From Geosiphon pyriformis (lineage: Eukaryota > Glomeromycota > Glomeromycetes > Archaeosporales > Geosiphonaceae): a stretch of 64,000 nt of DNA. The position numbers and the translations under genes are program-made. Below, one piece after another: positions 1 to 52,639 of this stretch (position 1 is the first letter of the stretch; the number at the start of each line of letters is the position of its first letter). The stretch covers positions 1,287,187 through 1,351,186 of the forward strand of contig JAAOMT010000003.1 in NCBI GenBank assembly GCA_016748015.1. The letters run 5' to 3'. The notes under the pieces are model-generated. The model searched no databases. It saw only the letters and a program-made list of their open reading frames with translations, and was not told the origin of the DNA.

Positions 1-3000
1 ATAAGAATTGGGGTGTCACACCATAGAAGACTTAAACCAATTGATATCAGCACGTAAACTATCATCTACAACACGAAAACCAACTCCAATCTCCCAACAA
101 GCTCGATGAACTAACCGGAAAACATTACAAACAAAGTGTCTAGAGTTACCAAAAACTGCTGTACCACCAGCACATAGAAAACGTTTACTGACTAAATGAG
201 GTAGGTGCCAAGCAGAGAAAGCAGTGCCTTTGGCAAGCATATCAGCATGCTCGTTGCTTGAAACACCTGAATGACCTTTCACCTTAACCCAATTCACATC
301 CAAATTCTTTTGACGAATAACGGTGGCAATGTGACGATGCTCGATTCAACAGCAGTTCCTGAAATCCGGACAAACCAGCGAAGACTCCGACCTGCATGCA
401 TTCAAAGCAGCCTGGCTATCCGAGAACAAGTCAATCGAACAAAAAAAAGGAACACACTCAAGGGCCAAAGCTATGGCTTGTAGTTCTGTTAGAGTAGAAG
501 AAACCAAACCAGACACCCCAACACCCAAACCCAAGTTAATGTCCTCAAAAAAACGGCAGCACCTGCTCTCATGTCAACAGTGCCCAGACCAGAAAGAGAT
601 TCATCCGTATACACAGAAAGGCGGGCAGCATCAATGGTCAGCAAAGTGTCACGAATTACACCAAAATCATGAGAAAGACGAATATCAGACACAGCATGAC
701 CATCCACCAAAGAAGAACTTGAGGAGAGAAGCACAACGCTACCAAGAAAGCGAACGGAAAGATCAAACCAGAAAGGGACTGGGCCACGAGGGTCCAGTCT
801 CTTCCAACACCTGAAGGTCCTCCAACTGAAAACATCACCATTACAGTCACAAAGCTGTTCCACAAAAGCAACTCCATAATGCTTGAGCGAAGAAACGTAC
901 TTGAAAAAACAGGATTCACCAAGAACCAAAGACATAGAAGTACCACGCCGATGACGAAAAGCACAAGTTAGAGGGCCTCCCAAAGACAAATCACACCCAG
1001 AAAAAATGTGAACCACACCTGCCAAAAAATTATCTGAGGGACTGATACCAACACGAGCCGGAAACAGCAAGGGATGATGAAGACGCCAGCTGAGAACCTG
1101 GAGGTCATGAGACCTATGAGAAAACAAGCGACCCAAGACACCAGTAGAATTTGCAAAAGCAACAATGGAGGCCAATTTACTCTCAGCCTGGATCTGTTTG
1201 AAAGTTTTTAAATTGTACAAAGAGGGGTGATGAAGTGCATCACTAGGAAAATCACGTGGCAATCCAGACTTAGACTTTAAGACCTTGTGTACCAAAGCAT
1301 CCCATTTATTACAAACACCAACAGAAACAAAACTGAACTGAGTCCTGTAGCTGATAATAGGGAAAAGAACTGCAGACACCAAATAAGCACACTGTTTGTC
1401 CGAAATCGCCTTTTTCAAAACAAGATTCACAAAAAACCGTACATCAGCCTGAGCTTTAGCCAAGCTAGGCTTTAAAAGACCCTCAGAAGACAAAAAAATA
1501 CCCAAATAGCAATGAGATTCCCCTCTCTTGGCAATGAAAATAGGCACACCACTGATAGTTAAATGAGGATCCAGCACCTGGCAATTGATGGGGATGGCCA
1601 CCGTTTTGTCATTGTTTACAGAAATATCGTTAAACCTAAAAAACTCATTAGCAACATCAAGGATGCGTTGTATAGCAGCCTGGCTGCTACCAACCCAAAT
1701 AGTATCATTGACAAAAGTGCCAGCAGCAAGAAATGAAGACAGCCCAGCTTGAGGATCCACCCGGCCGGTTCTTGATATGAAATTAGAATTCAACCTGTAG
1801 CCATACACACTATTCTGTCTCTTGACCTCACACAAAAGTGAATCATAAAAAATACACCAGAGAAGAGGTGAGAAGACTTTTCCCTGATCCAGCCCATTGT
1901 GGACACAATACCCATCAGTTAAGCCAAAGTCAGTTATCACTCTGTTGACGTGACCATTGTGAATACTGCCAAAAAATCTAATAAACCTGTCACACATTTT
2001 GATTCTGACTAGACTCCTCCTAAGATGTTTCTAACCCACCGAGTCATAAGCCTTGCGCATGTTCTGTAAAACCAGCCAAAGTTCATGGTTCTTCTTCAAG
2101 GCATTCTCAACCACAGAACCGATAGCAAAAATGGGAGACTGCGTTGTCGTACCCTTCAAAACCGAAAAATTGTCCCCATGAAGAACATCAAAAGCACTGC
2201 AAGCCAGAGAGATCCTATCTGAAAGGATCTTGGAGAGAATCTTGTGGGCCATTTCAATTAAAGCTATAGGATAGGTGTTTATAAGAACACTCTCCCATTT
2301 ATATGGTTTAGGAATCATCGAAACCCAAGCTTCTTTCCAAGGCCCAGGGGCTGACTTGCCAACCAAACAGAAATTCAAGAGCACCAAAAGCATATCCAAA
2401 ACAGATTTGTCACAATGTTTCCATAATTTGTTGGAGATACCAGAAAGACCAGCCGCTTTTCCATTAGGAAGATCCTTAACAACAGCTGACAACTCATCAA
2501 AACTAATCAAACACATGACATCAGAGAAAGCACCATCGAACACGTAATCCAGAGGCCGATATTGACAAGCCCAATTCTCAGACAAGACAAACACCACCTC
2601 ACGTTTTCTGGTCCATCCCTCCATAATTTCGTCCACCTTAGACTTAACCAACACAGGCTCTAAAATCAACTCATCTTCTATAACCAAATGATCCAGGACC
2701 ACTTTGCGAAAAGGACACTCCAAAACACTCCTAATGGTATGACCCTTGTTCAGCTCAAAACTCTCCATCCTCTTACCAACAGTCTGCTTAATCGAGGATT
2801 CCTCAGCACACTTGGATTTCACTAATTTGAAGGAGCAGTATGATTTTCTTGCCTTGGCCAGTGCAGAACAAATAAGATCAAAACTAGAGCCTGAAAGAAA
2901 CAGAGACTTAACCACTGATGCACCAGGGGAGTCGAGTCTGTGCCACACCTCCAACAAAGAAGCAAAACCATCACTAGAAGCCAAACGCGAAGCCTTGACC

Positions 3001-4019
3001 AGCTTAGAAACCAGCAGCTCCAGCTTGTGAAACCTAGAAAAAGTCTTGGTAAACACGCCATCAAAACCTTTGAACCATTTTTTTTTAAATGTACCACCCG
3101 CTGAAAGAACCATAATCTTGCGAACAATGTCCCACATAGCATCCACATCAGAAAATCTTACTGCCACACCAAAAGCATCCGAGAACATAGAGACATTAGC
3201 AGCTGAGGCATTCCTAAACTCCAACCACTTAGCTTTACTGGCACTATTGATGTTAAACTTCCAATGGTCTTTATTTGCTTACTTGCGAAGAGAATTCAAA
3301 CGCGTATCCAAGAGCCTGCCCAAACCCAAATCCACTGAAACAGCTTGATGGTCCATGTCAAAATGCTCACTGACATTCAAAACTTCATGATGCACTATTG
3401 CACTAACAAGACTCGAAAAGACAAATACATAATCAATTGTTTTCTTAACACCCCTAGAATTTTCCCAAGTGGGCATTTTTGCAGCTGGGCTACTAACTAA
3501 AGAATTGACCAAACCCAAATCAAAGCATCTTTTGAAACTCGCACTTTTATGAGAGCCGTCTTCATTGAAATCACCCTCGAGAATAATGAAAGAAGATTTG
3601 TTGACAGTCTTCGCAATGAGAGAAATGATCTCACCAGCCTGAGAGAACCGAACCACCAAAGAAGCACCAGCATAAAGCCCCAAAATTGACACAGAAAGTT
3701 TACCTTCAAAAAGTAATTTAATGGAAAGGAGCCAACCAGGCACCTCAGAAACCTTGCACACATGATGAGCCAAAGAAACGTCCATGATAACAGCAACACC
3801 CACACCCAAGTGACCAGAGTTCAAACCAGAAGTGAACACTCGGACACCATTGAACTTGTCTGCAATCCACGGACGAACCCTACTTCTTAATTTTGTTTCA
3901 GTAACGATAGAGACCAAATTGTTCATTTTCTTATGCCACCTAATAATGTCCTCTTGCTTAGTGGGATTGTTCATGCCCCTGACGTTGCACGTAGCAACTT
4001 TTCAGACTAAACTGCTCAT
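1..4019 (-). pseudogene. LINE A ORF2, endonuclease-RT-RNase H, broken
   Basis: Order of domains: endonuclease (GDFNEDGSHK, TIDYVF and a DMDH motif), RT (core near 2,500 to 1,200), RNase H (from about 600) and a conserved tail that leaves the window. The probable start is the ATG at 4019. In-frame stops lie at 4002-4004 (TGA), 3279-3281 (TAA), 2031-2033 (TAG) and 346-348 (TGA). At the same sites copy B has TGG, CAG, TGG and TGG. A shortened T-run near 550 shifts the frame in RNase H. The RT catalytic motif reads FVND instead of FVDD (codon at 1707-1709), and an upstream RT motif reads NMRKAYD. Both are G-to-A changes on the coding strand. The copy is dead. Confidence 0.88.
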
Positions 4020-5808
4020 TAGGTGAGGGTAGAGACACCGAAAGCACACCTATACTATCCACTTTGGCCGAAAGGTCCAAGACTGTCTCCATTAGACACT
4101 TCATGCTGTCTTCCAGCTTAAACACCAAAGATACATCAAAAAACACCGCTTCCGCAACATTTCCACCACTAGTGGACACACCTGAACCCTCACTCATCAC
4201 TACATCCGCCCCTTGATCCTGTGATGAAGGGGTCACCAATGGCTGACATCCAGGGCTAGGCTGGGGAACCATTGGCCCAAGTGCATCCAACTTCTTAGCC
4301 AGCTTACCAACTTGCTCCGCGAGGCTGGCGAGACTGCGCTCAAGAGCGGCGAACCTATCGTTGACTTCCATCGCTACCTGTAGGGACAGCTTCATCTCCG
4401 AAGAGGAGCCATTATTCACCACAATGTTCTGACCAAAGAGGGGGGGCAAAGAACACCCACGAGCAATCTTTGCCCAAGAGAGACCACCAAAAGAGACCGG
4501 ACAGGCAACTGGAGCCAAGTGTTTGGCATAGATGGTTGCTAGCCTGTTTTTATCCGTATTCGAGAAAACCCTATGCAGCGAACTACCAGAAGATAATTTT
4601 CCACCAACTACACAACCCAATGACGTGTAACCCAATTTCTCATACTTGGCGCATTTAGCAGAAATGAGGCAAGACCAGCGGAGATTGGTGTTCCTGAGTA
4701 CTGGCGTGGTTCCCACAACAGCATCCAATGATTCAGCAGAGTCGAAACAAACAACAGCACACCTGGCCCAAGCATACGTAACAGAATGATGATCAATGAC
4801 ACACGTTTTCCCACCCACAGATCTAACAAAGTCCCAGATATCATGAGCGGTGGTCCCCATCGGCAATGTGTAGAGCAGCACCCTATGTTGGTCTCTCACA
4901 TCCCATGTTTCCTTGTCTGAATCAGCCCTAGCCACATGTACAGCATCTTTCCCGATTAAGATGGACCACTCAGCTACGGCCAAATCAGCTTGATCCAATT
5001 GTTCGAATTCCACTATCGCCTTCTGCCACAGCCCGATCAATTGCATCTTGATCACCTTAATAACTCCAAACTCGGATAGTGCAGCACATACAGCCTCAGC
5101 CGATGTTCCAACTGGAATTTCTTTCACGACCACAGCCTGATCTGATCGTCCAGATGATCTCTTAAGATCGGTGTTTACCATGATATTCGCACCAGTAGCC
5201 TTTTCAGTGGCTTTCATTAGATCTGATTCGAAAGTGAATGTCGCTCTGATAATCCCTGAGAATTTTGAGGGGGTAGACGTCCCTCCAAAACCATTAATTC
5301 CAGAAAATAAACTCCTAATTTTCTTGAGCTTCTCCTGGGCCGAATTTTTTTCTACTGCTTTCAGATCCAAATTCAAAGCAAATGACTTCCTAACCGAAAC
5401 ATTGACCAGGTTCTTAAGAGGAGGGAGAAGCACCAGAGGGGCATCCAGAAGAACATCATTGTTATTATTGTCATCCAGGAAGTCGATTTTTCCCAAAGGT
5501 TTACCCAATGCTTTCCTAGTTGTCAACTGTAAACCTTTTGGCATTTGATCCAAATCTCTACTAATGAGCGCACCACCTTTACCATAATCAAAACTTGTCT
5601 CCTCAACAAGACATTTCTCTTCCATATCAACACTGTCAAATTCTGTGGTATCACCAGTCTCCGAATCCCATGAACAACTACTATGCACCCTAGCAGAACC
5701 CTCTTCAGCACCAGCATTGTCCTCAAGAACACTGCCTCTTCTCTTTTTTCTTGACAGAACAGCCTTGAAACCACCTTCAGAGCCAGAACTTTTAACCGTC
5801 TGTTTCAT
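3958..5808 (-). CDS. LINE A ORF1, RNA-binding protein, 616 aa, intact frame
   Basis: The nucleic-acid-binding ORF1 of LINE A, likely a component of the retrotransposition RNP. Visible parts are an acidic low-complexity N-terminus, an RRM-like fold at about residues 226-296 (VVVKEIP and KAIVEF as RNP2 and RNP1), a second at about 308-372, a CCHC-type knuckle at 386-399, and a heptad-like helix near 490-515. The knuckle is damaged: C386 and C399 remain, but the second Cys is Tyr (389) and the expected His is Tyr (394). Each Tyr is explained by one G-to-A or C-to-T change. The ATG at 5808 is the first after upstream stops. Its 3' end overlaps the ORF2 start (ATG at 4019) by about 60 bases, as is usual in LINEs. 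The frame is open, but function is doubtful. Confidence 0.8.
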   Translation of the reverse strand: MKQTVKSSGSEGGFKAVLSRKKRRGSVLEDNAGAEEGSARVHSSCSWDSETGDTTEFDSVDMEEKCLVEETSFDYGKGGALISRDLDQMPKGLQLTTRKALGKPLGKIDFLDDNNNNDVLLDAPLVLLPPLKNLVNVSVRKSFALNLDLKAVEKNSAQEKLKKIRSLFSGINGFGGTSTPSKFSGIIRATFTFESDLMKATEKATGANIMVNTDLKRSSGRSDQAVVVKEIPVGTSAEAVCAALSEFGVIKVIKMQLIGLWQKAIVEFEQLDQADLAVAEWSILIGKDAVHVARADSDKETWDVRDQHRVLLYTLPMGTTAHDIWDFVRSVGGKTCVIDHHSVTYAWARCAVVCFDSAESLDAVVGTTPVLRNTNLRWSCLISAKCAKYEKLGYTSLGCVVGGKLSSGSSLHRVFSNTDKNRLATIYAKHLAPVACPVSFGGLSWAKIARGCSLPPLFGQNIVVNNGSSSEMKLSLQVAMEVNDRFAALERSLASLAEQVGKLAKKLDALGPMVPQPSPGCQPLVTPSSQDQGADVVMSEGSGVSTSGGNVAEAVFFDVSLVFKLEDSMKCLMETVLDLSAKVDSIGVLSVSLPSPNEQFSLKSCYVQRQGHEQSH

Positions 5809-5959
5809 GACAACAATACTAGGGCCAACAACGGCCTCGTAATCAAGCAGAAATGATTTGGATTTATCGTACTGAATGGTAAAAAACTTCTTCCAAGAAA
5901 CTTTTGACTCTTTTTTTTTAGAATTTGTGGAGGAACGAGAGAAAGAAGTTTTTTTTTTT

Positions 5960-7100
5960 TTTTTCTTAAATATATAAATTTTATTTTAAATTATATTATA
6001 AATTTTTAATTTTTCTGTTTTAATTATTAAATATTATTAAAATTTATTTAACCAAGTATTTTTAAATTAATTATTGTGTGATTTTTCTTGTTTTTGATTT
6101 ATTATGTTAAATTTTTTAAATAACAAAATAATAATAATGTTAATTTATAGATAAAAAACAATAGTTTTTTTGGTGAATTTTATTTTGTAAATGTTTAATT
6201 TTTTATTATATATATATTATTGTTTTATTAAGTCTTTTAGCTTTTTTTTTGTGTTTAAAAGTTAATTGTATTAATTTGTTTTTTTAATATTAAATTGTTT
6301 ATGTAATACAAATATAAATAATTTTTTTAATTTTTTGTTAACCAATTTTACTTATTTTTTTACTAAAAGTTAAAATTAATAAAAATTGCATAAATAAACT
6401 TATTTACTTGAATTTTATAAACTTGTTTTTTTATTTTATAAATTCAGACAAACTTTTATTGATTAGTTTTTTAAAAATAACTAAGTTTGCTATTACATAT
6501 AATTTTGTATAAAAAGAATTATTTATTGTTTATACTTTGTTTTAAAATATAAAAATTATTATAAATATTTATTATTATTATTTGAATTAAAAATAAATTT
6601 GTACTAATGTATATATTAATATATTAATAAAGTGTAAAAAAAATAATCAAAAGACAATTTTAAAAAGATTTAAAGCATAAATTTTAATAGTTTAATATAA
6701 TGTTTTATGAAAACAAAAAAATAATATATTATGTTTAATAACTTTATTTTATGTAGTTAATGCTTGATTAATTGCTTTATTTATAATTTTGGCAAAAAAT
6801 TAAACTTAAACAATTTTGTAAAAATATGTTTAATTAAACAAGAGTTCTATTAAACTTTTATTTACCTTAAATAGTTAAATTTTTATTAAAAAAATGTTGT
6901 TTTTTGTTAAAAAGTTATAAGTTTAACTAACTTTTTTCAATAATACAATTTTTATTTTTTCTAATTTAATGTTTTTTGCTCCATTCTATTACTGCATTAA
7001 AAGCAAATTTGGCCAATTTCATTCATTGTTTTAAGAATTGTTTTTGAATATAATTTAATTAATAATGTACAATTAAGAGTATTTTCTGTTTTTTGGCATT
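5960..7100. other. AT desert, no gene seen
   Basis: Extremely AT-rich DNA with long T runs and almost no CpG. I see no coding signal. The texture matches the decayed repeats at 21.8-24.5 kb, so it is probably fossil transposon sequence. Confidence 0.5.
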
Positions 7101-7980
7101 TGTTATGGGTTGTTATGTTTTTTTTTGTGTTTTTTAGTTTCTATGTTTTCAATTATATCTTTTTTATCATTTTTGCATTTGACTGTTGATAAGAAGTGTG
7201 ATTTTTGCAAAATTGAAAAACAAGACATGTTGGAAGAAGTTGAAGCAACAGTGTCAATCATAATGGGTAAACACAATTTTCAAGACCATTCTGCAACTTG
7301 TTCATTCCAATAGGGTCTTAAAAAGCTGCTTTTAATTTTTAAATTTCTTTTTTTGTTTGGTAATGGTGGTGGTGGTGGTGGTGGTGGTGGTAATAATAAT
7401 AATAGTGGAATTGACATTTTTAGAAAGAGTAAAAGGTTACTTTTATAACAAAATAAAGGTAGTAATTGAAATAGTGTCAATAACAGTTCGAGATTTAAAT
7501 TGATGCTAAATACTGATTTATAGGGGCTTCGTAACAAACGTGTTTGTCTGAAATTAAATACTTGTGCAAAGGCAAGGCCTGCAAATTCACATACCATAAC
7601 TCGTACAGGTGTCAGTAATCCCACTATCCCAGAACCCTAATACCAAAATTTTCATTGTTGTAATCGTTCCGTGAAAATAGCTCACGAAATTAACTGGATG
7701 AAGAAACTTGAAATTCTGTATGAAATCACGATTGCGTAATTTTTAATCTAAAACATCCCATGAATCTCAGAACGCAGGGAAAAATTTAGTATAACTTCTC
7801 AAATGCCGATATCACCCCCTGTGTCTCCAGTGCAAAGCAATAACAAGTTTTCGAGCGACAAAACAACTCCTCACTCAATTTTCAACCTAGGAACTCCTCG
7901 ACGGTATCAGGTCAGGTATCAATTTCAAAGGATCGGGACTTAAGATTCTATTGGAACGAACAAGCTGCGAGATGGCGGCG
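7100..7980. other. mixed intergenic DNA with possible coding relics
   Basis: Base composition becomes more normal here. A short plus-strand stretch at 7181-7313 reads like protein (Cys-rich, ending CSFQ and stop), and 7540-7624 reads plausibly on the minus strand. Neither can be tied to a family or to splice sites. A GGT microsatellite lies inside. Confidence 0.3.
7365..7391 (+). repeat. (GGT)9 microsatellite
   Basis: Nine perfect GGT units, followed by a short run of AAT units. Confidence 0.9.
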
Positions 7981-7982
7981 GT

Positions 7983-8192
7983 TTGCGATATCTTGCCCCA
8001 GAAATTTTAATAGGAGGAACCTGATCTGCTGCAACCGATATTTACAGTTTTGGGATGATTATGTATAGCGTAGCAACCGGAAAAAGGACATTTTTTAATT
8101 GCAACCACGATGAAAAGTTACCCTCGAAGATTTATGGCGGCACACGTTCTAAAGTTTCGAAAGATATTCCCGAGAGTTACAGCATCCTCTTA
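7983..8192 (+). pseudogene. protein kinase C-lobe relic
   Basis: The plus-strand frame gives LRYLAPEIL, an in-frame TGA, then SAATDIYSFGMIMYSVATGK and FFNCNHDEK. These are the APE motif and the conserved D-x-YSFG region (subdomains VIII-IX) of Ser/Thr or TKL-like kinases, with the N-C-x-HDE tail typical of the large kinase families in arbuscular mycorrhizal fungi (family knowledge; the organism link is inference). The TGA sits at 8020-8022, between APE and the DIYSFG segment. No N-lobe, HRD or DFG segment in frame is found upstream. Downstream the frame runs into a region of stops after about 8,192. It is a broken fragment, not a working kinase. Confidence 0.75.
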
Positions 8193-8386
8193 CCCTTCAA
8201 AAAGCAGTACTATTCCAGACCCAAATATTAATAATAATAGAAATGACGACAAAAATTCCACAAATAATGTTATGACTTCAAATAGTAGCAAAACGACAAC
8301 CACAATATTAATGAAAACGAATTGTCTCAAATGTTGTCTCTATTTTCCAAGTGTGCTTTTCTATTAGGGGAAATTGAAATCTACTA

Positions 8387-9159
8387 CTAAGGAAAATTTA
8401 ATTCTTTGTTGCGCATCACGTTAGCCTCATATTTTTCTTCAACATTATCGTCCTTGTCAAAAATATTATTTTGAATGGCAATAAGTATAGTATGAAGAGC
8501 AGAAGGGCCTTTTTCATGTATGGGAAAAGGTATTATTTCGGTTTCTTCATGATTGGTCTTTTCTTCGACTTTGGGAGGATAAATATCCAAATCATAGAGT
8601 TGTTTGCCTGCTACTGTCATTGCTATTGGAAAGCAACTCAAAATCGGCAGGGTAATTTCTTTCATAGTATCATCATCCTCGAAATTGTAGGATTTTTCTA
8701 GTTCCTTTTTGATTACTGGAGCAAAATCGCTTTCAATTAATAATAGAATATCTACAAGAAAAGATTGAGAAGGTCCTCACATTCTTCATCGGTGAAATCA
8801 TTATCGTCACTGTCAACGGCTTCAATAGACCGCGATAAACATTGTCTTCAAGTGACACATCATCTGCTGTAGCTATAGATAACATTCAAAAACAATTTGA
8901 TAAAAGAAATACAATAAATATGAATTTATTTACCATCTTTGCCCAATTCTGTTGTCATTCTCCATTTCACCACTTCAAGAATTTCAGGTTTCTGTTCGAT
9001 GACGACTCACGGTATAACCAAATGCTTCAGCTCTTCATCTAATTCGGCTCTCTTTGCGATTTGAGCATTACTAATTTCTTTTTCATGACTTTTTAAATCT
9101 AGCTTATCAGTTCTAACTTCTTGAGATATTGATAAGTAGAGAGGTTCTGCCATTTCCAT
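8387..9159 (-). pseudogene. frameshifted unknown acidic protein gene
   Basis: Read on the minus strand from ATG 9159, the sequence is clearly coding-like: MEMAEPLYLSISQEVRTDKL, a helical charged stretch, then an in-frame TGA soon after LKHLVIP, then VVIEQKPEILEVVKW. A good intron follows (GTAAAT to TATAG, about 8,940 to 8,875) and leads into DDVSLEDNVYR. After that the frame changes twice: the acidic run SDDNDFTDEECEDLLNLF is in one frame and LVDILLLIESDFAPVIKKEL in the next. The final 92-codon block ends with TAG at 8387-8389. I do not recognise the family. One stop and two frame shifts argue for a recent pseudogene, although assembly indels could give the same picture. Confidence 0.55.
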
Positions 9160-9488
9160 TCTTTTTGTTTTTACAAATTGTATTTTTCTATCATCAGAGG
9201 AAAATTAATTTTTAGTAGAATGAAATTATAGTGCAGTTCCTGAGTCAAATGAAAGTCATGGAACATTGTATAATTTTTATTTTAGTTAAATAGTTCTTCT
9301 TCATCTTTTTAATACACTTCTTGATAGGCTTAAAGAATATTAGTAACCCAATTTTTTGCAAAATTATTTGTCATTCTTTTTGTAATTCAATAAATAATTT
9401 GCAATTATTGCAATTGTAATAATAACTGTAATTATTTCTAACTATTATAATTATTCCAATTAAATTATTTACAATAAGTGTAACTTTT

Positions 9489-9615
<127 letters not shown>

Positions 9616-9906
9616 CATTTTTAATATGCAATTATTGTAATTAATTACATTTAATTTACAACTTATAATTTTTAAAAATTACTCTTCAAATAATATTAAA
9701 AAAACAGTTTTATAAAAATGATACAGATTCTTAATTGTATATGATTTTTAATTAATAACACAATATTAGTTAATAATAATTAAATTTTAATTAAAATAAC
9801 ATTTTTAAAGTTTCAAAATTTTGAACAAAAATAATATAATAACAAGTTAATAATTAATTAATTAAAGTAAATAAAAAAATCATTTAGTATTAAGATTTTT
9901 TAATTA

Positions 9907-9909
<3 letters not shown>

Positions 9910-9961
<52 letters not shown>
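9910..9961. repeat. second (ATT)n microsatellite
   Basis: About 17 ATT units, 300 bases from the longer array. Confidence 0.9.
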
Positions 9962-9963
<2 letters not shown>

Positions 9964-10091
9964 TAGTTTTATATATGATTTTTTTTAAAAATAATGATAA
10001 TAAATAAAATAAACGGATTAAATCAAATATTCTTATAATTATTAAACATGAATTATTGTTAACTTTTATTATTTTATTTTATTTTTTGTAG

Positions 10092-10236
10092 TTGGTGTGG
10101 AAAACATCCAAAACATTGGAGGATCGGGGATATATATAGAGATGAAAATGGCGCTCGGGAAATTTTTCTCCGGGCATTGCTTGATGGAGTCTTGATTCTC
10201 TCTGGAGATCATGCAGGAAATAGTAGCAATGCTTAA
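10092..10236 (+). CDS. candidate terminal exon, gene unknown
   Basis: A pyrimidine-rich tract ending TTTTTTGTAG is followed by an open frame of 48 codons and TAA at 10234-10236. It reads WCGKHPKHWRIGDIYRDENG and ends LSGDHAGNSSNA. Composition is far more coding-like than the flanks. It would be the last exon of a plus-strand gene whose earlier exons I cannot find. The upstream 900 bases are microsatellite and AT-rich. It could also be a relic. Function is unknown. Confidence 0.3.
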
Positions 10237-10535
10237 CATTGTTTATTATTGATATATTACAATCCATCCGGGCCATCATCATGCTGTCTTACCATCTCGA
10301 CAAAGTACAAATTCACGCTGCGCCTCTTGTGGGAAGAAAGGCTTGTTTGGCCAAGCATTATTTTTTCAGACTTCTGCTAAATTGTTAAGTATTATAGAAG
10401 GGAGATGATGTATAAGAAATAATGAAATTCAATATATACATGTATATATATAATAATTATAACGATATTTTATTAACAATCTAAAATTAAAATGACTATA
10501 GTATTTTTGGTGACTTCGGTTTATCAAGAGTGACT

Positions 10536-11212: not shown

Positions 11213-11236
11213 AGGCTGATGAAGATCATTCATTGG

Positions 11237-12739
11237 GTAAGTTTTAATTAGAAGTTTAAATAGTAAAAAAAAAAATATGGCATTGATTTTACTTATTCAC
11301 AAATGTGTGTCCAAATATGATTACAATAAATAATTATGTTAAAATTTTATTTTATTATTATTTTTCTGTATTCATTTTTAACTTTTAGAATCTTGCAAAA
11401 ATAAATATTGTTTTTTTTTTTTTTTTTTACTTAACTTTTTAAATTCGAATATTGTCATTTTTATTTTAGTTTTATTACTTTTATGTTTATATTTTTATAT
11501 ATATAAAATGATAAAATAAATTTTAATTTTTAATATATAACAATATTATTTTTTAAACACTTAAAATAATGAAATTTTTATTATTTATTGTAAATAATGA
11601 AATTTTTATTATTTATTGTAAATAATAAAACTGCTTATTAAATAATCTAAAATTTTTTTAAAATACAGTTTACATTTTTTATGTTCAAATGTGTTAAATA
11701 CTTTTATAATAAACAAAAAAAAACTAATTACATTAATTTAATTGTTTTTTTATTAAATACAAACTTTCTATTTAATTTACTTTTTTTAAAGCACATTTTA
11801 CAAAAATTATTTTACTTACAAATGTTTTCAATATCCAAAATTATAAATTAAAAAAAGCTGGTTTTAGCTGGGGAGATAAAAAATCATATTTTATAGTTTT
11901 TTCTTAAAGTCATTCTTGAATACTGCTTTATTTTAAAAACTAAAGACAGTATTCTATAAAACTTTCCAATAAAAAAGAGAGTAATTATATATTTTTTTCG
12001 CATTAGTAAACAAAATAGTTAAAACCAAAAAAGTATTGCCTTTAAATTTGAATCTGAGAAAAATTGGAACGCTCATAATCCTTCAGGCCTATTACAAGAT
12101 GTATCATGTTATTATTATATAAAATAATAATATTTTTTTCTCTGTTTTCACAATACAATCAGTTTAAGAAAGTGGAGAATATATATTTAGATTTTATTAA
12201 CTTAATTTTAGATATAATCTACCATAATCGTAGGATAATTTTGTTAACAAAAGATTTAGGGTCACAAAATTGAAAATAAAATGTATAGATTTTTAATCAT
12301 AGAATTTACCAAAGAATATTTACAAGCAACGAAAAATGATCACTTATCCCTTTTTACTTCGTCGTCTTAAAAATGGCGGTAAAAATGTTTTTCAATAAAT
12401 ATTCCAAATTTTGTAATACTTAATCTCCCACAAAAAGTGATCCGTTAAATCTCAGTGATTTATTCAATTGAACACAATTGTTTCAGATTTCTTGGTCAGT
12501 TATTTTTTGTTTTTCATACTGACAGTTCCATTTGAAAAGTGCCCATTTATTTTTTTAAAAAGCGTATATGAAAAACTATAGAATTATAACATATAAGATA
12601 TACAAAGGCCTTAACACAGAAAATACTCGGAGCAGTGTGTCTAGCAGTAGTTGTTTTAACAACACTTTACAATTTCCGAACCGTTGCGCTTGAAAATAAA
12701 GGCTAGAAGCGCAAAAAGCAGCCGTGAAAAATTCCATTC

Positions 12740-12770
<31 letters not shown>

Positions 12771-12952
12771 TATTAGTGATATAGAAACTGGAAAGTAATG
12801 AATTTTAGTTTTGAACATTTCAAAGAGCTGATATAAATGACTTTTAAAGAATGTATATATCCCATTTAATATATATAAAGATCCATTTTTGCCCAGCTAA
12901 CTTATCGCCTTTTTATATCTGCCTTAACGTTATTATGCTATTTTTTTGCTAG
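11237..12952. other. AT-rich DNA between PIGP and an orphan last exon, possibly one long intron
   Basis: Begins with a perfect GTAAGT donor at 11237 and ends with TTTTTTTGCTAG at 12952. In between lie AT-rich decayed sequence, fragments of more normal composition near 12,040-12,110 and 12,340-12,840, and an AGT microsatellite. No complete gene is visible. Confidence 0.35.
12741..12770 (+). repeat. (AGT)10 microsatellite
   Basis: Ten perfect AGT units in a fragment of otherwise moderate composition. Confidence 0.95.
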
Positions 12953-13017
12953 CTCCTCTTAGCCCTCAGCCTGCCAAGCCTGCCACAAAGATTGAAAATA
13001 ATTTAGATAGTGATTAA
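12953..13017 (+). CDS. candidate terminal exon, PLSPQPAKPATK tail
   Basis: After TTTTTTTGCTAG an open frame of 20 codons ends in TAA at 13015-13017 and reads PLSPQPAKPATKIENNLDSD. Its GC content stands out against the desert. Its phase (two leftover bases) fits the donor at 11237, whose exon ends with one base after the frame SLLKADEDHSL. It may thus be the last exon of the PIGP gene or of an overlapping gene. Confidence 0.35.
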
Positions 13018-14904
13018 CCCAAAATTTTCGAGATGAAATGGTTATGATTATTATCTAATGAAAGTAAATTAAACATTAACATGATTAAGTTTCATGTTAT
13101 ACTGAAGTTAAAAATCAACTAAAAATATGTTCTGTAGCCTTATCAAAAATTTTATAAGCTTTTTCATAAAGTCTTTAAAATGCTCAAAATATTATATTAC
13201 TTGACTATAATGTCTTTGGATAGATGAATAGTTTCCGAATAGAAAATATTTATGAAAAAACACATTAGTAGCCAAGCGTCATTTCTTAACCTTCTTTTCA
13301 GCTATTAGAAATAACTTTAATTTCTCAAAGCCAATTTGTGTTTTTCTTCCCAAAGTCAATAAAAAGCCACAGGGAATTATTTTTACACTGGAAAATTCTA
13401 TTTTTCAAGATTTCTTTGATATTTAAAAATTTACATAAAAACCGAATATTTTTCTGAATTTTTTTTAATATTAAGTTTTGATTAGGAGTTTTATATAACT
13501 ATAATATTAAAAACATAATATTTCTCAAAAAATCATATTTTATTATTACCAAAATATCTTAAAAGTAATCAATTTTAAGTATCAGAAAATATTATTTAAA
13601 ATTACTTGAAAACCTAATTAAACTAATTTAAACCAAATTTCAGGCTTTTTTTTCTGAATTATATAACTAAAACAAAAAACCTTTTTTTAAATTTAATCAT
13701 ATTCTAATTAAAGAATTATCTCCTTTATTTATTATTAATAAAAATTAAATTAAATTAACCACAAAATATTACCAAAATGGCAAAAAATTTGATTTAAATT
13801 AAATAATGTTATTATATAAAAAAACCAAAATTAAAAATTAAAAACTGCAATAAAAATTTATAACCAAATCTGAATCAAACTAACTAATTAATTAAATTAA
13901 AAATATGTTTCAATTTTAATTACCAAAAAAAAATTCCAAATTATTGTACACAATAATAAATGTAATTTTTCTACAATTTTTATTATAATGTATATACATG
14001 TACTTTTTTACATGTAATTAACTATTTGAACCAATTAAAACTATTTTACAAAAATGCATTTTGTTTTTAAAATTTAAAATATTATTTATTTTAATCTTAT
14101 AAACTATAAAACTTTTTTTTTCTATTTTAATATTTTAATTATATAAAATTTTATTTTTAGTCATAAAAATATTAAAAATATTAAAATTAAAGCAAATTCA
14201 ATTTTTTTTAGCAAGATAATTAATAGTTTTTATAAATATTAATATCATTAAAACTAAATTTTAAACTTGTGTTTTTAATAAAAACAAATTTTTATTTTAT
14301 TTTCTATTAAATTTTACAAAAATAATTACAAAAACATTAAGTAAAAAAAAATTTAATTAATTTCATAAATTACAAAATTGAATAAAAATACCAAAGTCTT
14401 ATTACTTTTAAATATAAAATTAACAACACAGTACTTAATTTTAAATTAGCATTTTGATTATATTGTCTAATACAAATAAATCTAATTAAATATCACAAAA
14501 TAGTGAATTGAATAATTAAATTAAATATTTTAAATTATACAATTAACTAAATAAATAACAATAAATTAAACTTTTATTATTATTATTATTATTATTATTA
14601 TAATAAAGAGTTAAACTAAATAATACATTTAAAAACATGATAAATATTGAAATTACATTAATATTATTTTTATTTTTAATATTTATTTGTTTACATTTTT
14701 TATATATTTATTTAATAATAGTTTTTTTTATTTTTATATTTATAATTGTTGTTTTATTTGCAATAATAATAACAATAAAACTTTTATTAAAGCTGGTTTT
14801 AATTAATATTTAGCTAAATTGTTTAATATATTAAATTTTAATTATTTATTATTAGTTTTAAATACAAAAAAATTATATATATTTTTTTTATTATCATTTA
14901 ATAA
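13018..14904. other. AT desert with decayed repeats
   Basis: No gene seen. Very AT-rich with an ATT run near 14,577-14,600. Parts resemble the reverse complement of the desert repeat at 21.8-24.5 kb. Confidence 0.5.
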
Positions 14905-15013
14905 GTGAGGTCCAAATGCTACCTAGCACTATACATCATACAAATGATCTAAACTAGGCGCGAATCATGCACTTTCTATACATGACCAGCCACTCGAGCC
15001 AGTCAGAACAACA

Positions 15014-18000
15014 CTACATACCTATATGCATAGAAACTGTGTCCCCAATACCCGAAAAAAATAAACAAAGCTTACAAAACCCAAAACTAACCCCAAAAGC
15101 TTCAGCCACACTCAACAATCTAATCACACCAGCCAAAAACGCCAAAGACAAACTGGAAATTAATGCAGAAATGGACCCATCACGTGGAATCAAACCATGC
15201 TTCTCCATAAATGCCTGGTGTTTGGCACGGACCAACCAAATATCATCCCGAAACGTGAGACAAAACTCATGCACAAAGCTCACAATCTTTTTAGTACCTT
15301 CCTTAGAATTTTTAAAAACTGAGACAGACTCACAAAACCAGTCATCAAAAACAAAGCCCTTACACAGAGCAACACCAATTTTAACCTCAGAAATACAAGA
15401 AGCCAACATCTGCAAGACACATGAAGAAGAGCGAGATAGACCAAAAAGAGCCTCCCAAGCTGAAGCATGAGCATCCAACAAACAAACACGGTCAGTAATA
15501 TCATGAGGACACGAAAAGACATGATCCGAGATCTCAACATTACCACAGAACAGACAGACCACACTGGAGTATCTCCTATCATATAAGCGCTTGCGCACAG
15601 CAACAGGAAGCCAAAAATGAAGAGCCTTCATAAAGTAAGTACGACAGCTTGCCGTGCGCATACTGGTGAAACCGGAGACCAAGTGAGAATTAGTGTGCCA
15701 CACCAAAAAAGACTTAAACCAATTGATATCAGCATGCAAACTAGCAGCCACAATGCAAGAACCAACTCCAATCTCCCAATGAGCACAATTAACTGATTGG
15801 AAAACATTACGAACAAAGTGTCTAGAATTACCAGAAACTGCCATACTACCAGTACACAGAAACTGTTCACTGACTAAATGAGACAGACGCCAAGCAGATA
15901 GAGCAGTGTCTATGGCAAGTGCATCAGCATGCTTATTGTCTAAGACACCTAAATGACCTTTTACCTTAACCCAATTCACATCCAAATTTTTTTGACGAAT
16001 AATGGTAGCAATGTGGCGACGTTCAATCCAACAGCAGTTCTTGAAATCTGGATAAATTAATGAAAACTCCGACCTGTATGCATCTAAAGTGGCTTGGCTA
16101 TCTGAAAACAAGTTAATCGAACGAGAAGAAAGAACACACTCAAGGACCAAAGCTATGGCTTGCAGCTCCGCCATAATAGAAGAAACCAAACCAGACACCC
16201 CAACACCCAAATCCAAGTTAATGTCCTCAAAAAAAATGGCAGCACCTGCTTTCATGTCAATAGTGCCCAGACCAGACAGAAACCTATCCGTATACACAGA
16301 AAGGCAGGCAGCATCAATAGTTAGCAGAGTGTCACAAACTACACCAAAATCATGAGAAAAACAAACATCTGACACAGCACAATCATCCAACAAAGAAAAA
16401 CTTGAGGAGAGGGAAACAACACCACCAAGAAAGTGAATGGAGAGATCAAACCAGAAAGAGATTGGGCCATGAGAGTTCAGTCTCTTCCAACACTTGAAGG
16501 TCCCCCAGCTGAAAACATTACCATCTCTGCCACAAAACTGTTCCACAAAAGCAATTCCATAATGCCTGAGCAAAGAGACACACTTGAAAAAACAGGGTTC
16601 ACCAAGAACCAAGGACATAGATGTACTGCACCGACAGCAAAAAGCACAAGCCAGAGAGCCACCCAAAGACAAATCATATCCAGAAAAAATACGAACCACA
16701 CCAGCCAAAAAATTGTTTGAGGGATTGACACCAATACGAAATGAAAATAGCAAAGAATAACACGGGTGCCAGCTGAAGACTTAAAGGTTATGAGACCTAT
16801 GAGAAAAAAGCCAACCCAAAATACCAGTAGAATTCGCAAAAGTAACAGCAAATGTCAATTTACTCTTAGCCTGAATTTGCTCAAAAGCCTTCAGACCATA
16901 TAATAAAGGGTGGTGCAGTGTATTGTTGGGGAAATCACGGGGCAACCCAAACTTTGATTTCAAGATCTTGCATATTAGAGCATTCCATTTGTTACAAACA
17001 CCCACAGAAACAAAACTGAACTGAGTCTTATAGCAGATAATAGAAAAAAGAACTGTAGACACCAAATACACACATTGTTTATCAGAAACCACCTTCTTCA
17101 AAACCAGATTCACAAAAAACCTTACATTCGCCTGGGCTTTAGCTAAACTGGGCTTCGAAAGACCCTCGGAAGATAAAAAAATGCTTAGGTAATGATGAGA
17201 TTCCCCTTTCTTGGCAATAGAGATAGGCACACCACTGACAGTTAAATGAGGGTCTGACACCCAGCAATTGATAGGGATGGTTACTGTTTTGTTGTTATTT
17301 ATAGAAATATTGTTAAATCTAAAAAACTTACTAGTAACATCAAGAATGTGTTGTGTAGTAGCTTGGCTGCTACCAACCCAAATAGTATCATCGACAAAAG
17401 CACCAGCAGCAAGAAACAAAGACAGCCCAGCCCGAGGATCTGCCCGGCCAGTTTTGGATATAAAATGAGAATTCAACCTGTAGCCATACACACTATCTTG
17501 TCTTTTGACTTCACACAAGAGTGAATCATAGAATATACACCAGAGAAAAGAAGAGAAAACTTCCCCTTGATCTAGCCCATCATGAACACAATACCCATCA
17601 GTCAAGCTGAAGTCAGTCATCACTCTGTTAACACGACCATTGTGAATGCTACCAAAAAATCTAATAAACTTATCACACATCTTAATTCTGACCAGACTCC
17701 TCCTAAGATGTTTCCAACCAACCAAGTCGTAAGCTTTATGCATGTTCTGTAAAACCAGTCAGAGTTCTCAGTTTTTCTTTAGAGCATCTTCAATCACTGA
17801 TTCTACAGCAAAAATAGGAGACTGCGTTTACATACCCTTTAAAACTGAAAAATTGTCCCCACGAAGAACATCAAAAGTGTTGCAAGCCGAAAAAATCCTA
17901 TCTGAGAAGATCTTGGAAAAAATCTTGTGGGCCATTTCAATTAGAGCAATAGAACAAGTGTTCATGAGAACTCCCTTCTATTCATATGGTTTAGGAATCA

Positions 18001-19701
18001 TGAAACCCAAGCTTCTCTCCAAGGTCCAGGAATAGACTCACTAACTAAACATAGGTTCAAAAGCACCAGAAGCATATCCAAAATTGATTTGTCACAACGC
18101 TTCTACAATTCGTTAGAGATACCAGAGAGACCAGCCACTTTTCCATCAAGAAGATCCATGACGATTGCCAACATCTCATCAAAACTAATCAGACACATGA
18201 CACCAGAGAAAGCACCATCAAAAACATGCTCCAGAGACCAATATTGGCGAACCCAATTACCAGAGATGTCAGAAACCACCCTATGCTTTCTGGTCCACCC
18301 CTCCATAATTTTATCCACCTTCGATTTGACAGAGTCAGGCTCCAAAACCAACTCATCTCTCACAACCAAATGATCTAAGACCACCTTGCGAAAAGGATGC
18401 TCCAAAACACTCTTAATGGTGTGACTTTTGTTTAGTTCAAAACTCTCTATTCTCTTACTAATAGTCTGCTTGATCGAAGATTCCTCAGCGCATTTGGATT
18501 CCAACAACTTAGAAGCACAGTACAACTTCCTTGCTTTGGCCAGTGCAGAACAAATAGGATTAAAACCAGAACCAGAAAGGAACAGAGATTTCACCACTGA
18601 TACACCAGAGGAATTAAGCTTATTCCATGTCTCTAACAACAAAGCAAAATCTTCACTGGAAACCAAGCGAGAATTCCTAACCAGCTTAGACACCAGCAGC
18701 TCCAGTTTATGAAACTTAGACAAGACCTTATTAAAAACACTATCAAAACTCTTGAACCATTTTTTTTTGAAAGTTCCATTCGTTGAAAGAACCATAATTT
18801 TTCGAACAACATTCCATATCTCATCCATATCTGAAAATTTCTTAGCCATAACAAAAGCATCTGAAAACATAGAAGCATTATCAGCCGTGGCATTCTTGAA
18901 CTCCAACTATTTTACCTTACTGGCACATTTAATGTCAAATTTCCAACGATCCCTGTTGGCCTGTTTGTACAATAAAGATAGCTGCACATCCAATAACCCA
19001 CCTATACCCACAGACACAGAAACAGCCTTATAATCAGTATCAAAAAAGTCATCAATACCAGCTACACTGTGATTCACAACTGTGTTAATCAAATTAAAGG
19101 AGACAAAAATGTAGTCAATTGTCTTGGCAACACCATGAGAATTGCACCAAGTAGGAGATTTCACAAACGAACTCCCACCCAAAGAGTTGACCAAACCCAA
19201 ATCAAAACACTTGTTGAAACTGGCACATTTGTGAGAACCATCCTCATTGAAATCACCACCAAGAATGATAAAAGAAGATTTATTTATCACTTTAGCAATG
19301 AAAAAGTTGATATTACCAGCCTGAGAGAAACGAACTACCAAAGAAGCACCAGCATACAGCCCTAGAATTGACACAGAAAGTTTGTTCCTAAAAAGCAGCC
19401 TCACTGACAAGAGCTGACCAGGAACCTCTGAAACCTTGCACACATGTCTCGCCAACAAAGAGTTCAAAATAATAGCAACACCAGATCCCATGTGATCAGA
19501 ATCCAGATCAGAAGTAAAAATGCGAATGCCATCAAACCTATCAGCAATTCAAGGACGAATTTTCCCCTTTAACTTTGTTTCAGTGACAATAGAAACCAGA
19601 TTGTTCATATCCTTATGCCAATGCACAATGTCTGCCTGCTTTGCACAATTGTTCATACTTCTGACATTGCATGTGGCAATCTTCCAAACTAAATGAGTCA
19701 T
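15014..19701 (-). pseudogene. LINE B ORF2, endonuclease-RT-RNase H, broken
   Basis: The start is probably ATG 19701 (MTHLVWKIATCNVRSMNN, the normal N-terminus of an APE endonuclease). Endonuclease motifs GGDFNEDGSHK and TIDYIF are intact. The RT keeps FVDD, unlike copy A. RNase H follows, and a CCHC-like CLFCGNVEISDHVFSC near 15,550. Stops lie at 19549-19551 (TGA), 18907-18909 (TAG), 18103-18105 (TAG) and 16781-16783 (TAA). Copy A has TGG, TGG, TGG and CAG there. A one-base loss near 18,000 (copy A TTTCGATGATT, here TTTCATGATT) adds a frameshift, and a further Trp codon has become TAG just after it. Confidence 0.88.
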
Positions 19702-21653
19702 TGAGATAACATGAGAGCTGACAAACCCAAACCAGAACACAGAAGATTCAACTTATCCAAAACTGAACCGACTGAAGCTTCCAAAGTGACCAATTTTGTC
19801 TCCAAACCATCCACCTTGGCAGTAAGAACCTTAGAACCACTAGTGCTGAGGTTGACAACAGCATCATTAGCGACAAAGAGAGTAATACCAGAAGAACTTA
19901 AAGCATTGTTTACAATCATATCCGAATCCACTTCAGAATTCAAAGCTGCAGAAACAACAGAAGTGGAAACCATGAAAGAAGGAACTAAGGGAACCACACC
20001 AAAGGAATCCAACCTAACCAAGATGCCAGAAACACAGTCAGCCAAAAGCTCCAAAGAGTGTTCCAAAATTGCCAAACGATCATTCAAATGGGACACAACA
20101 AGAGGATCAGAGATTGCTAAAGGATGAACCAAACCAGAATGCAAATCATAACCAGAAGAACTAGAAAGAAACACATAGAAGGGGGTGCCACTAGCAACTT
20201 GGGCCCATGTCTTGCCACCAAACAAAACTGGATGAGCAATAGAAGCTGATTTTTTTTTATATATACCAGCCAGGTGAATCCGATCCTGATCAGAAACTAC
20301 CCTTTTCTCACGAGCACCAGAACTTCCATCCACAAGACAATCAGCATGGATATAACCAAATTGTTTGCACTTGGCACAGCTAGCCAAAACAAGACTAGTC
20401 TAACGCAAACTAACACTCTTGAAAATCGGAATGGTACTAATAGCAGCCAACTTGGCAGCCTTATCATTAAAACAAACAATTGCACATTTATTGCGAACAT
20501 AAGAGACAGAATTGCGACCAATGAAACATGTCTTCTCATTATAAGATTCCAACAAATCAGAAAGATCATAGGCTGTTGTTCCCACTGGCAAAGTATACAA
20601 CAAAGCCCGATGCCGATTCCTAGAAACCCACGATTGTTTATCTTCAGTTGCCAAAGCCACTCGCACAGAATCCTTACCCATGAAAACTGACCATTTGGAA
20701 GCAACCATGCCAGCTATTTCAGCTGACTTAAACTCCACCAAGATCTTTTGCCATAGACCAACTAACTGCATTCTGATTGAAACAATCTCACCAAACTTGG
20801 AAAAAACTGATTTCACAGCTGATTTGGGAAGATTGACTGAAATCTCCTTGACCACAATTTCCTGATTTGAACGACTGTTTATTTTTCTTAGCTCATTATT
20901 AACTAAAATTTTCCCACTGACAGCCAAACTCTTTGCCTTATTCATACTAGCTTCTGAAGTGAAAGTAGATCTGATGATTTCAGGAAACTTTGAGGAAGTG
21001 GAGGCCCCCCCAAAACCATCAACATGATAAAAATTTTTTTTGATTGAGACCAACTTATCACCATTAATTTTGCCAGGAATGGCAGATAGCTCAATATCTA
21101 ATGCAAATGATTTTGACGAATTAAAATTCCATTTCTCTAGTGCACGTGACCCGATTGGAGGAAGGTGAATAGATCCATAAAATTTGGGACTCGGGAGAGG
21201 CAAAGTATCCTCACCATCACTTGGAACGTTGAAAGAGAGAGGTGGCAGCTTACTGTTCAGAACATAGGTGCGGGTACATGTTTTCCTTGGCATGGCATCA
21301 TCCATGTTATCATCCAAACCCAAAACATTCGATTCTGCATAGCAAGTTTTCTCAGTGATGACGTTTTCCATATTATTCAAGTCCAAGACACCACTTATGC
21401 TATCCACTTTGCTGTTGACTTCGTTAGCCCACAATCATCCAATATTAGGTCTGTCACCACTTTTATCTATAACGTTCAAGACACCAGCAGACAACTCCAC
21501 CAACCCGTCAACTGCTACAGATTTTTTCGGCTTTTTATAGGATGCACTACGAGAATGAGGACCAACCAAACGCTTATTTTTGACACCAGACCGGGTCCTC
21601 AACTCAGCCGAAATAGACCCAGAACCACCAGCAGCAAAGCCCACTGGTTCCAT
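19698..21653 (-). pseudogene. LINE B ORF1, two premature stops
   Basis: Starts at ATG 21653 (MEPVGFAAGG). Premature stops lie at 21435-21437 (TGA) and 20400-20402 (TAG). The second replaces a Trp that copy A retains (LRWSC). RRM-like motifs are present (IVVKEISVN; KILVEF), then a second fold (RALLYTLPVGTTAYDL). A zinc knuckle CAKCKQFGYIHADC follows the second stop. It keeps the three Cys, but the expected His of CX2CX4HX4C is Tyr, as in copy A. A leucine-rich helical C-terminus follows. Apart from the two stops the frame is intact. Confidence 0.85.
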
Positions 21654-21780
21654 AGCTACAAAAAGGGGAATATCTGAAAAAATAACTGGAGAAAGTTGAA
21701 GGAGAAAGGGAAAAAGAAGGCTATTTTAGTGATGACTCAATGCTTTCATTGTGACTGGGGGATTAACGAAAGAAAAAGAT

Positions 21781-24714: not shown

Positions 24715-24802
24715 TGTTACAGTTGAAACTTATACTTCTTATTAATTATCACATGTATTAGCCACTGATATCATATAAATTAGCCACTTTATTTTTAGAA
24801 AG

Positions 24803-24886: not shown

Positions 24887-24897
24887 ACTTTTGATAA

Positions 24898-29207: not shown

Positions 29208-29269
29208 TTAAACTTAAGAAAAGGTTGGGTTACAAAAAATGGAACTTGATCACCAAGATTTATATAGAA

Positions 29270-49590: not shown

Positions 49591-49599
49591 ATTTATATA

Positions 49600-52620: not shown

Positions 52621-52639
52621 ATATTATCCCAATTATAGG

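What the first reader, a model, noticed from the sequence alone, without database searches (positions are those of the whole stretch)
346..21437. All comparable nonsense codons in two LINE copies are C-to-T or G-to-A transitions
In copy A the stops at 346, 2031, 3279 and 4002 stand where copy B has TGG, TGG, CAG and TGG. In copy B the stops at 16781, 18103, 18907, 19549 and 20400 stand where copy A has CAG, TGG, TGG, TGG and TGG. That is nine out of nine, seven of them Trp to stop. Random decay would also give Lys, Glu, Tyr or Leu stops through transversions. The pattern is that of repeat-induced point mutation or deamination of methylcytosine. RIP is classically known from Ascomycota, so such a signature in an apparently early-diverging fungus deserves attention.
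Basis: partly seen in the sequence, partly recalled or inferred. Interest (0 to 1): 0.75.

Follow-up and report, generated by a model that had tools for sequence, protein, structure and literature searches.

The report
Jumping genes riddled by cytosine mutation
In this genome, probably of an early-diverging fungus, the copies examined of a jumping gene are peppered with C-to-T changes and carry far fewer changes of any other kind, the mark of a mutation process aimed at mobile DNA that resembles, but does not match, the known fungal defence called RIP.

Summary
All nine stop/partner pairs exist. Across 30 genomic copies, 130 of 136 in-frame stops need only C:G>T:A changes and one is a single transversion, although transversion routes to a stop outnumber transition routes 368 to 86. 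The column majority keeps the frame open. Near-full copies carry about 188 C:G>T:A changes per 4.3 kb, against 43 other changes, only about 9 of them private; one pair differs by 315 transitions and 3 transversions. A pattern blind to C>T/G>A found 99 copies; no untouched copy was seen. A second transposon family shows the excess; Sel1 genes (Ts:Tv 1.0-1.5) and a duplicated methylase gene (2.3) do not. Context: CpG first, then TpC/CpC; CpA is not favoured. A CpG hit drops its partner to background; no patches, no strand grouping. No RID-type motif was found among the methylase loci read. Best reading: transposon-aimed cytosine methylation/deamination over many rounds, RIP-like in effect but not canonical RIP. 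Host (probably Glomeromycotina) is inferred; methylation was not measured.

The parts
1..5960 (-). LINE copy A (RRM-like ORF1; ORF2 with endonuclease and reverse transcriptase); runs off the window start, 3' end in locus L001; ends approximate
   Evidence: Pfam RRM_1 0.0053, RVT_1 5.6e-6, Exo_endo_phos_2 4.8e-4, all below the gathering cut-offs; ends read
14900..21940 (-). LINE copy B, a second subfamily, 79.6% identical to A over 4 kb; ends approximate
   Evidence: blastn self-comparison; transversion distance between A-type copies and B about 2.7%
346..348 (-). stop TGA in A; TGG in B
2031..2033 (-). stop TAG in A; TGG in B
3279..3281 (-). stop TAA in A; CAG in B (two transitions)
4002..4004 (-). 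stop TGA in A; TGG in B
16781..16783 (-). stop TAA in B; CAG in A (two transitions)
18103..18105 (-). stop TAG in B; TGG in A
18907..18909 (-). stop TAG in B; TGG in A
19549..19551 (-). stop TGA in B; TGG in A
20400..20402 (-). stop TAG in B; TGG in A
48997..55766 (-). third, far-decayed LINE remnant in AT-rich DNA, likely (inferred) the end state of the same decay
   Evidence: tblastn of ORF pieces of A and B, 27-43% identity, best E 1.3e-50; CpG observed/expected 0.21 in 44500-58000
59395..61960 (.). DNA transposon with inverted terminal repeats; its family shows a C:G>T:A excess
   Evidence: its two ends differ by 30 transitions and 4 transversions

Best explanation
Copies of this LINE, and of at least one DNA transposon, are targets of a host process that changes C to T on both DNA strands after insertion. 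The most likely mechanism is targeted cytosine methylation of transposon DNA, dense at CpG and sparser at TpC and CpC, by the DNMT1-like and DIM-2-like enzymes found in the genome, followed by deamination of the methylated (or enzyme-bound) cytosines that is not repaired. It acts as many independent hits over many replication rounds until the reading frames are full of Trp-to-stop, Gln-to-stop and Arg-to-stop changes, and it ends in AT-rich, mostly CpG-poor DNA. Shown here: direction, both strands, context, independence of hits, mutual exclusion at CpG, scarcity of other private mutations, presence in two transposon families, absence in two sets of repeated or duplicated genes, near absence from the branches shared by LINE copies. 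Inferred: methylation, the enzymes responsible, deamination as the chemistry, the many rounds, and how transposons are recognised.
For: 27 near-full copies: 188.5 C:G>T:A per copy against 4.7 private A:T>G:C and 4.4 private transversions over 4.3 kb. Extreme pair 315 transitions to 3 transversions; L063 differs from A at 6.8% of sites with transversion distance 0.000. Stops 130 of 136 by C:G>T:A alone. Context with intact neighbours: CpG 0.33-0.35, others 0.05-0.10; outside CpG, TpC over RpC 2.42-fold (95% interval 2.16-2.71) and CpC over RpC 1.58-fold. CpG partner exclusion: 72 TpA seen against 305 expected; partner rate after a hit 0.06, the CpA background. Non-CpG hits show no patches and no strand domains. 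CpG observed/expected 0.95 in the gene region, 0.21 and 0.27 in two AT-rich stretches, with TpC at 0.74-0.75 there. On branches shared by copies about 0.5 C:G>T:A per other change, against 18-20 to 1 for private changes. Controls without the excess: Sel1 paralogues 344:315 and tandem units 292:191; methylase gene duplicate 50:22. Second transposon family, 7 copies: C:G>T:A 0.151 per site, A:T>G:C 0.027, Tv 0.007. C5-methylase loci, one with BAH, one whose motif I is closest to PDB 9baq. CG methylation of most transposon loci is reported for an AM fungus (PMC8647823, passages).
Against: Methylation was not measured. The strength of the effect depends on the yardstick: CpG change is about 150 times the private A:T>G:C rate (other C 27 times), but only about 23 and 4 times the rate if subfamily-shared A:T>G:C variants are counted too (my arithmetic); the second yardstick would not demand an active step. 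The 5' pyrimidine preference outside CpG matches no DIM-2 pattern that I saw (Zymoseptoria: CG>CA>CC methylated, CA mutated). In the second transposon family CpG is not favoured (0.124, 89 observations). Two AT-rich stretches are less CpG-poor (0.87 in 6000-14500, 0.61 in 60000-64000), and a repeat pair at 22019-22291/23502-23777 is not transition-rich (28:31). In R. irregularis Sel1-like genes are more CG-methylated than ordinary genes, yet Sel1 genes here are spared. Load does not clearly rise with the private clock, which fits an early burst as well as equal ages. Another piece of L038 matches DNMT1 chains marginally better than 9baq, and other pieces of L034 found no relative in the PDB.
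Confidence: 0.57

Rival explanations
1. Classic repeat-induced point mutation: duplicated DNA is recognised before meiosis and mutated by a RID-type enzyme, mainly at CpA, within one or a few sexual cycles.
For: C:G>T:A excess on both strands of repeats; load nearly independent of the private clock (intercept 122.7+-3.1, slope 0.99+-0.34 over 34 copies).
Against: CpA is not favoured (0.049-0.065 against CpG 0.33-0.35); TpA is not in excess in the AT-rich DNA (0.84-0.89); no QT/ET motif VI in the six methylase loci where it could be read; no strand grouping; Sel1 repeats of about 3 kb up to 85% alike are spared.
Confidence: 0.12
2. Passive decay only: transposons are methylated, methylcytosine deaminates at the ordinary spontaneous rate, and all A copies are about equally old.
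For: CpG first, ACG highest among NCG, partner exclusion, independent hits; the flat regression is also expected if all copies have the same age; with all A:T>G:C variants as yardstick the CpG excess is only about 23-fold.
Against: With private changes as yardstick the excess is about 150-fold at CpG and 27-fold elsewhere, more than the roughly tenfold that I recall for mammals; non-CpG sites would need methylation too; 16 of 30 copies have no indel in the 4.2-kb frame; equal ratio rejected (p 7e-8, or 0.01 without L047), though L047 may just lack sampled sisters.
Confidence: 0.23
3. Genome-wide AT-biased mutation, with nothing aimed at repeats.
For: AT-rich genome; the 27 copies whose 3' flank (about 200 bases) was read lie in DNA of 7-34% GC.
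Against: Sel1 paralogues (Ts:Tv 1.0-1.5) and a methylase gene duplicate (2.3) lack the excess, although selection and older divergence weaken these controls; CpG observed/expected is 0.95 in the gene region; load does not follow flank GC (r -0.13).
Confidence: 0.04
4. Editing of LINE RNA or cDNA (APOBEC-like) during reverse transcription.
For: A TpC preference outside CpG and a load set at insertion would fit.
Against: C>T and G>A are about equally frequent and not strand-grouped; CpG preference with partner exclusion points to double-stranded DNA; a DNA transposon shows the excess too.
Confidence: 0.02
5. Artefact: systematic base-calling errors at methylated cytosines, or damaged template DNA.
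For: Sequencing platform unknown; such errors are C/T and sit in methylated DNA (recalled).
Against: About half of all CpG sites per copy differ, spread over nearly all CpG positions (1 of 298 unhit in 30 copies) in a different set in each copy; long Sel1 frames are open; a far-decayed remnant shows the long-term result.
Confidence: 0.02

Closest known systems
RIP of Neurospora crassa and other Ascomycota (RID, DIM-2)
   Same: C:G>T:A on both strands of repeated DNA, stops at Trp and Gln codons, AT-rich end state
   Different: CpG then TpC/CpC instead of CpA; no RID-type motif found; Sel1 repeats spared; no strand grouping
RIP-like hypermutation at TpCpG in Microbotryum and other Pucciniomycotina (passages in PMC4352252 and PMC4014442)
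   Same: CpG-centred C:G>T:A in transposons outside Ascomycota; a DNMT1/Masc2-type enzyme
   Different: TCG is the least mutated NCG here (0.298 against ACG 0.382); a strong non-CpG part
CpG signature linked to Masc2-type methylase (PMC4352252, passages)
   Same: CpG bias in transposon copies; DNMT1-like gene
   Different: Non-CpG sites also strongly mutated here; DIM-2-like genes present too
Dim2-dependent mitotic mutation in Zymoseptoria tritici (PMC8016269, passages)
   Same: Methylase-linked C>T in transposons without a sexual cycle; CG, CA and CC methylation
   Different: There more than 98% of C>T is at CA; here CG and YC
CG methylation of transposons in Rhizophagus irregularis (PMC8647823, passages)
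   Same: Probable relative of the host; most transposon loci highly CG-methylated
   Different: No mutation signature in the passages read; the paper cites absence of RIP in Gigaspora and Mucoromycotina; Sel1-like genes are there more methylated than ordinary genes

Membership tests
Repeat-induced point mutation (RIP) | C:G>T:A transitions predominate, on both strands | tested here: met
   C>T 1621 and G>A 1991 of 4501 minor variants, Tv 330, A:T>G:C 559; 174-217 C:G>T:A per near-full copy
Repeat-induced point mutation (RIP) | CpA preference | tested here: not met
   CpA 0.065/0.049, CpC 0.099/0.067, CpT 0.056/0.061, CpG 0.327/0.349 on the two strands
Repeat-induced point mutation (RIP) | RID/Masc1 methylase with QT or ET in motif VI | tested here: not met
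   10 PF00145 matches at about 7 loci; ENV read at six of them: L033, L034, L036, L038, L039, L041, not readable at L037; criterion from PMC6572847 section 14; genes searched exon by exon, so a miss is possible
Repeat-induced point mutation (RIP) | any duplicated DNA is hit, genes included | tested here: inconclusive
   two gene sets spared; selection and age could hide hits; only two sets examined
Repeat-induced point mutation (RIP) | acts before meiosis | not testable with these tools
   needs crosses
TpCpG hypermutation (Pucciniomycotina type) | TpCpG is the preferred site | tested here: not met
   TCG 0.298, ACG 0.382, GCG 0.352, CCG 0.326
Methylcytosine deamination at CpG | CpG strongly preferred, and the partner base loses the preference once the CpG is destroyed | tested here: met
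   TA 72 against 305 expected; partner rate 0.06 after a hit; not seen in the small second family
Methylcytosine deamination at CpG | the target cytosines are methylated | not testable with these tools
   no methylation data
Methylcytosine deamination at CpG | confined to CpG | tested here: not met
   non-CpG C>T 0.03-0.11 by trinucleotide, against A:T>G:C of 0.002 (private) or 0.014 (all variants) per site
APOBEC-type cDNA editing | one-strand bias | tested here: not met
   C>T 66.7 and G>A 57.9 per 1000 sites; no grouping

The most novel reading that the evidence does not exclude
A non-Dikarya fungus, probably an arbuscular mycorrhizal one, has its own RID-independent mutator that is aimed at transposons and spares repeated genes, works at CpG and at pyrimidine-C in many rounds without strand grouping, and has inactivated whole LINE families: a RIP analogue outside the phylum to which a 2025 kingdom-wide survey restricts RIP-like signatures.
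Probability: 0.45. Interest if true: 0.8.

Novelty: new variant of a known kind. Interest (0 to 1): 0.62.

Why it matters
A survey of fungal genomes (PMC12543289; abstract and passages seen) says that ascomycetes alone show RIP-like signatures in repeats, and papers on AM fungi say that RIP was not detected in, or is lacking from, Gigaspora (PMC8647823 and PMC7082362, passages). In the listings of eight searches (most of them capped) and the passages I read, I saw no report of such a signature in Glomeromycotina; two R. irregularis genome papers do not contain the word RIP (word counts). If the host is of that group, transposon-aimed cytosine mutation is either older than Dikarya or arose again, and screens tuned to CpA or AT-rich words may miss it. 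A pattern blind to the mutation also gives a simple way to count such copies.

Tried and rejected
Strand grouping of C>T against G>A: an apparent excess with all sites (0.512 against 0.488) vanished when CpG sites were left out (mean z 0.04); I ascribe it to CpG partner exclusion. A plain clock: regression of load on private changes gives a high intercept, but equal ages would give the same, and L047, which drives the homogeneity test, may simply lack sampled sisters; burst against equal age stays open. Flank GC as driver of load: r -0.13. Target-site duplications as a unique-DNA control: given up, as the flanks seen are nearly pure A/T. Repair loss: one partial UDG match and one HhH-GPD match, not conclusive for intron-split genes. 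An exact 316-bp repeat that seemed to show in 38982-39690 is only the overlap of the two stretches compared, and is dropped. Structure predictions were not run; they would not bear on the question. Host identification by SSU rRNA failed each time; the Sel1 expansion (1991 first-look candidates, 150 scored) is the main basis for 'Glomeromycotina-like', which rests on recalled knowledge. Rfam found nothing in the window.


Full report
What was checked. The nine stop/partner pairs were read from a pairwise alignment of the two LINE copies and all are there. The list is not complete; the extra stops that I take as comparable are transitions as well. The two copies are 79.6% identical over 4 kb; in a 3-kb stretch A-type copies differ from B by only about 2.7% in transversions, so most of the divergence is transitions.

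Many copies. The window lies in G000:C401 of a 124.7-Mb assembly of 406 contigs. A 1.5-kb query from copy A gave 40 copies, 91-94% identical, from 40 scored of 2267 first-look candidates. Loci of the best 30 (about 4.5 kb each, A included) were aligned; 4292 columns were used, with badly aligned stretches masked, chiefly in L004, L017 and L019. These 30 were ranked by likeness to A, which biases them. Against the column majority, minor variants are C>T 1621, G>A 1991, A>G 287, T>C 272 and all transversions 330. In 27 near-full copies the load is 188.5 C:G>T:A on average, against 30.0 A:T>G:C and 12.9 transversions; of these others only 4.7 and 4.4 are private, the rest being shared, in good part by subfamily. 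Sixteen of the 30 have no indel in the 4.2-kb frame. Over all 351 pairs of the 27, transitions to transversions are 15.1 to 1; the extreme pair has 315 to 3.

Stops. The majority frame is open over 4196 bases. In 41,192 codons of 30 copies there are 136 stops, of which 130 are explained by C:G>T:A alone; of the other six, five combine a C>T with a second change and one is a single transversion.

A sample not ranked by load. A 35-letter pattern with Y for C and R for G, blind to C>T and G>A, matched 99 places, and its reversed control none. The first 30 by contig number became loci. Nineteen of these 30 are A-type (13 of them already in the first set); they carry 117-165 C:G>T:A in 3035 bases, with 3.4 private A:T>G:C and 3.8 private transversions on average. 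L063 shows a transversion distance of 0.000 to A and is 6.8% different. By eye, one of the 99 shows no C>T or G>A within the 35 letters (C295); it is the copy L023, which carries 196 elsewhere. So no untouched copy was seen, but most of the 99 were read over 35 letters or not at all beyond that, and copies with other changes there would be missed. Copies of the B group also differ mostly by transitions, e.g. 299 to 12 and 307 to 18.

Context. With intact neighbours, CpG sites are changed in 33-35% of cases (25-28% without that condition), CpC 7-10%, CpA 5-7%, CpT about 6%. Outside CpG the 5' base matters most: TpC 9.5%, CpC 6.2%, RpC about 4%; the TpC to RpC ratio is 2.42 (95% interval 2.16-2.71 by site resampling). 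Both strands behave alike. At CpG the order ACG, GCG, CCG, TCG is unlike the TpCpG preference reported for Pucciniomycotina (passages in PMC4352252 and PMC4014442).

How the hits fall. A CpG hit on one strand makes the partner no more mutable than any CpA: TpA 72 against 305 expected, partner rate 0.06. Outside CpG, hits are not clustered and not grouped by strand. One-strand, one-round events should leave strand blocks (inference); these copies look like the sum of many independent rounds. Whether those rounds were fast or slow is open: load against private changes has intercept 122.7+-3.1 and slope 0.99+-0.34 over 34 copies, and a constant ratio is rejected with p 7e-8 (0.01 without L047), but equal ages would also give a flat line.

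Where it acts. On branches shared by copies there are about 0.5 C:G>T:A per other change, so the active lineage is not visibly hit (selection may help); the excess belongs to inserted copies. A DNA transposon end (7 copies, 505 columns) shows C:G>T:A 0.151, A:T>G:C 0.027 and transversions 0.007 per site; there CpG is not special. Controls lack the excess: Sel1 genes 344:315 between paralogues, tandem units 292:191 in the closest pair of L079 (85% alike) and about 1.0-1.2 to 1 in L080; a duplicated methylase gene 50:22. These controls are under selection and older, so they are weaker than neutral DNA would be. A short repeat pair in the AT-rich DNA (22019-22291/23502-23777) is not transition-rich, 28:31. 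CpG observed/expected is 0.95 in the gene region 26000-43500, 0.27 and 0.21 in 22000-25500 and 44500-58000, but 0.87 and 0.61 in 6000-14500 and 60000-64000. The stretch 48997-55766 holds a far-decayed third LINE.

Enzymes. Ten PF00145 matches make about seven loci. L034 has a BAH match; its relative L038 has a motif I closest to PDB 9baq/9bap, which I take from memory to be DIM-2, while another piece of L038 matches DNMT1 chains about equally well. Others look like DNMT1/Masc2 (L036) and DNMT2 (L041, perhaps L039); these names rest on recalled motifs. Motif VI reads ENV at the six loci where it could be read, not the QT/ET given for RID and Masc1 in PMC6572847 (section 14 read).

Reading. Canonical RIP is not supported on two tested features (CpA, RID). 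Methylation-linked deamination fits CpG and its partner effect, but the pyrimidine-C component and, on the private yardstick, the strength of the effect ask for more than passive CpG decay. I therefore favour a transposon-aimed methylation/deamination process, with an active or poorly repaired step, as a new variant of a known kind.

Noticed in passing
window 48997-55766 (-): A third LINE, decayed to 27-43% protein identity, lies in DNA of about 12-22% GC: the AT-rich compartment is at least partly made of old LINEs.
   Followed up: partly
window 59395-61960: DNA transposon with inverted terminal repeats; 54 matches from 40 scored of 219 first-look candidates; transition-rich divergence.
   Followed up: partly
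L033/L035 and L037 (C318, 32 kb apart): A C5-methylase gene pair, one copy apparently broken; L033 is not of RID type by motif VI, family not determined.
   Followed up: partly
G000:C314:806900-843300 and C301:125309: Very long open Sel1-repeat frames (up to 2065 aa and 4187 aa), open although highly repetitive.
   Followed up: partly
L001-L030, 3' ends: The 27 copies whose 3' flank was measured sit in DNA of 7-34% GC; the 15 printed have A-rich tails; insertion preference or survival bias unknown.
   Followed up: no
window 38921-39690: Repeated units, 73-84% alike, inside the 818-aa frame 38537-40993.
   Followed up: no
G000:C282:250264 and C330:1077108: One UDG-family and one HhH-GPD match in the genome; possible poor repair of deaminated bases, but introns limit the search.
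   Followed up: no
window 22019-22291 and 23502-23777: A short repeat pair in AT-rich DNA whose differences are mostly A/T swaps, unlike the transposon copies.
   Followed up: no
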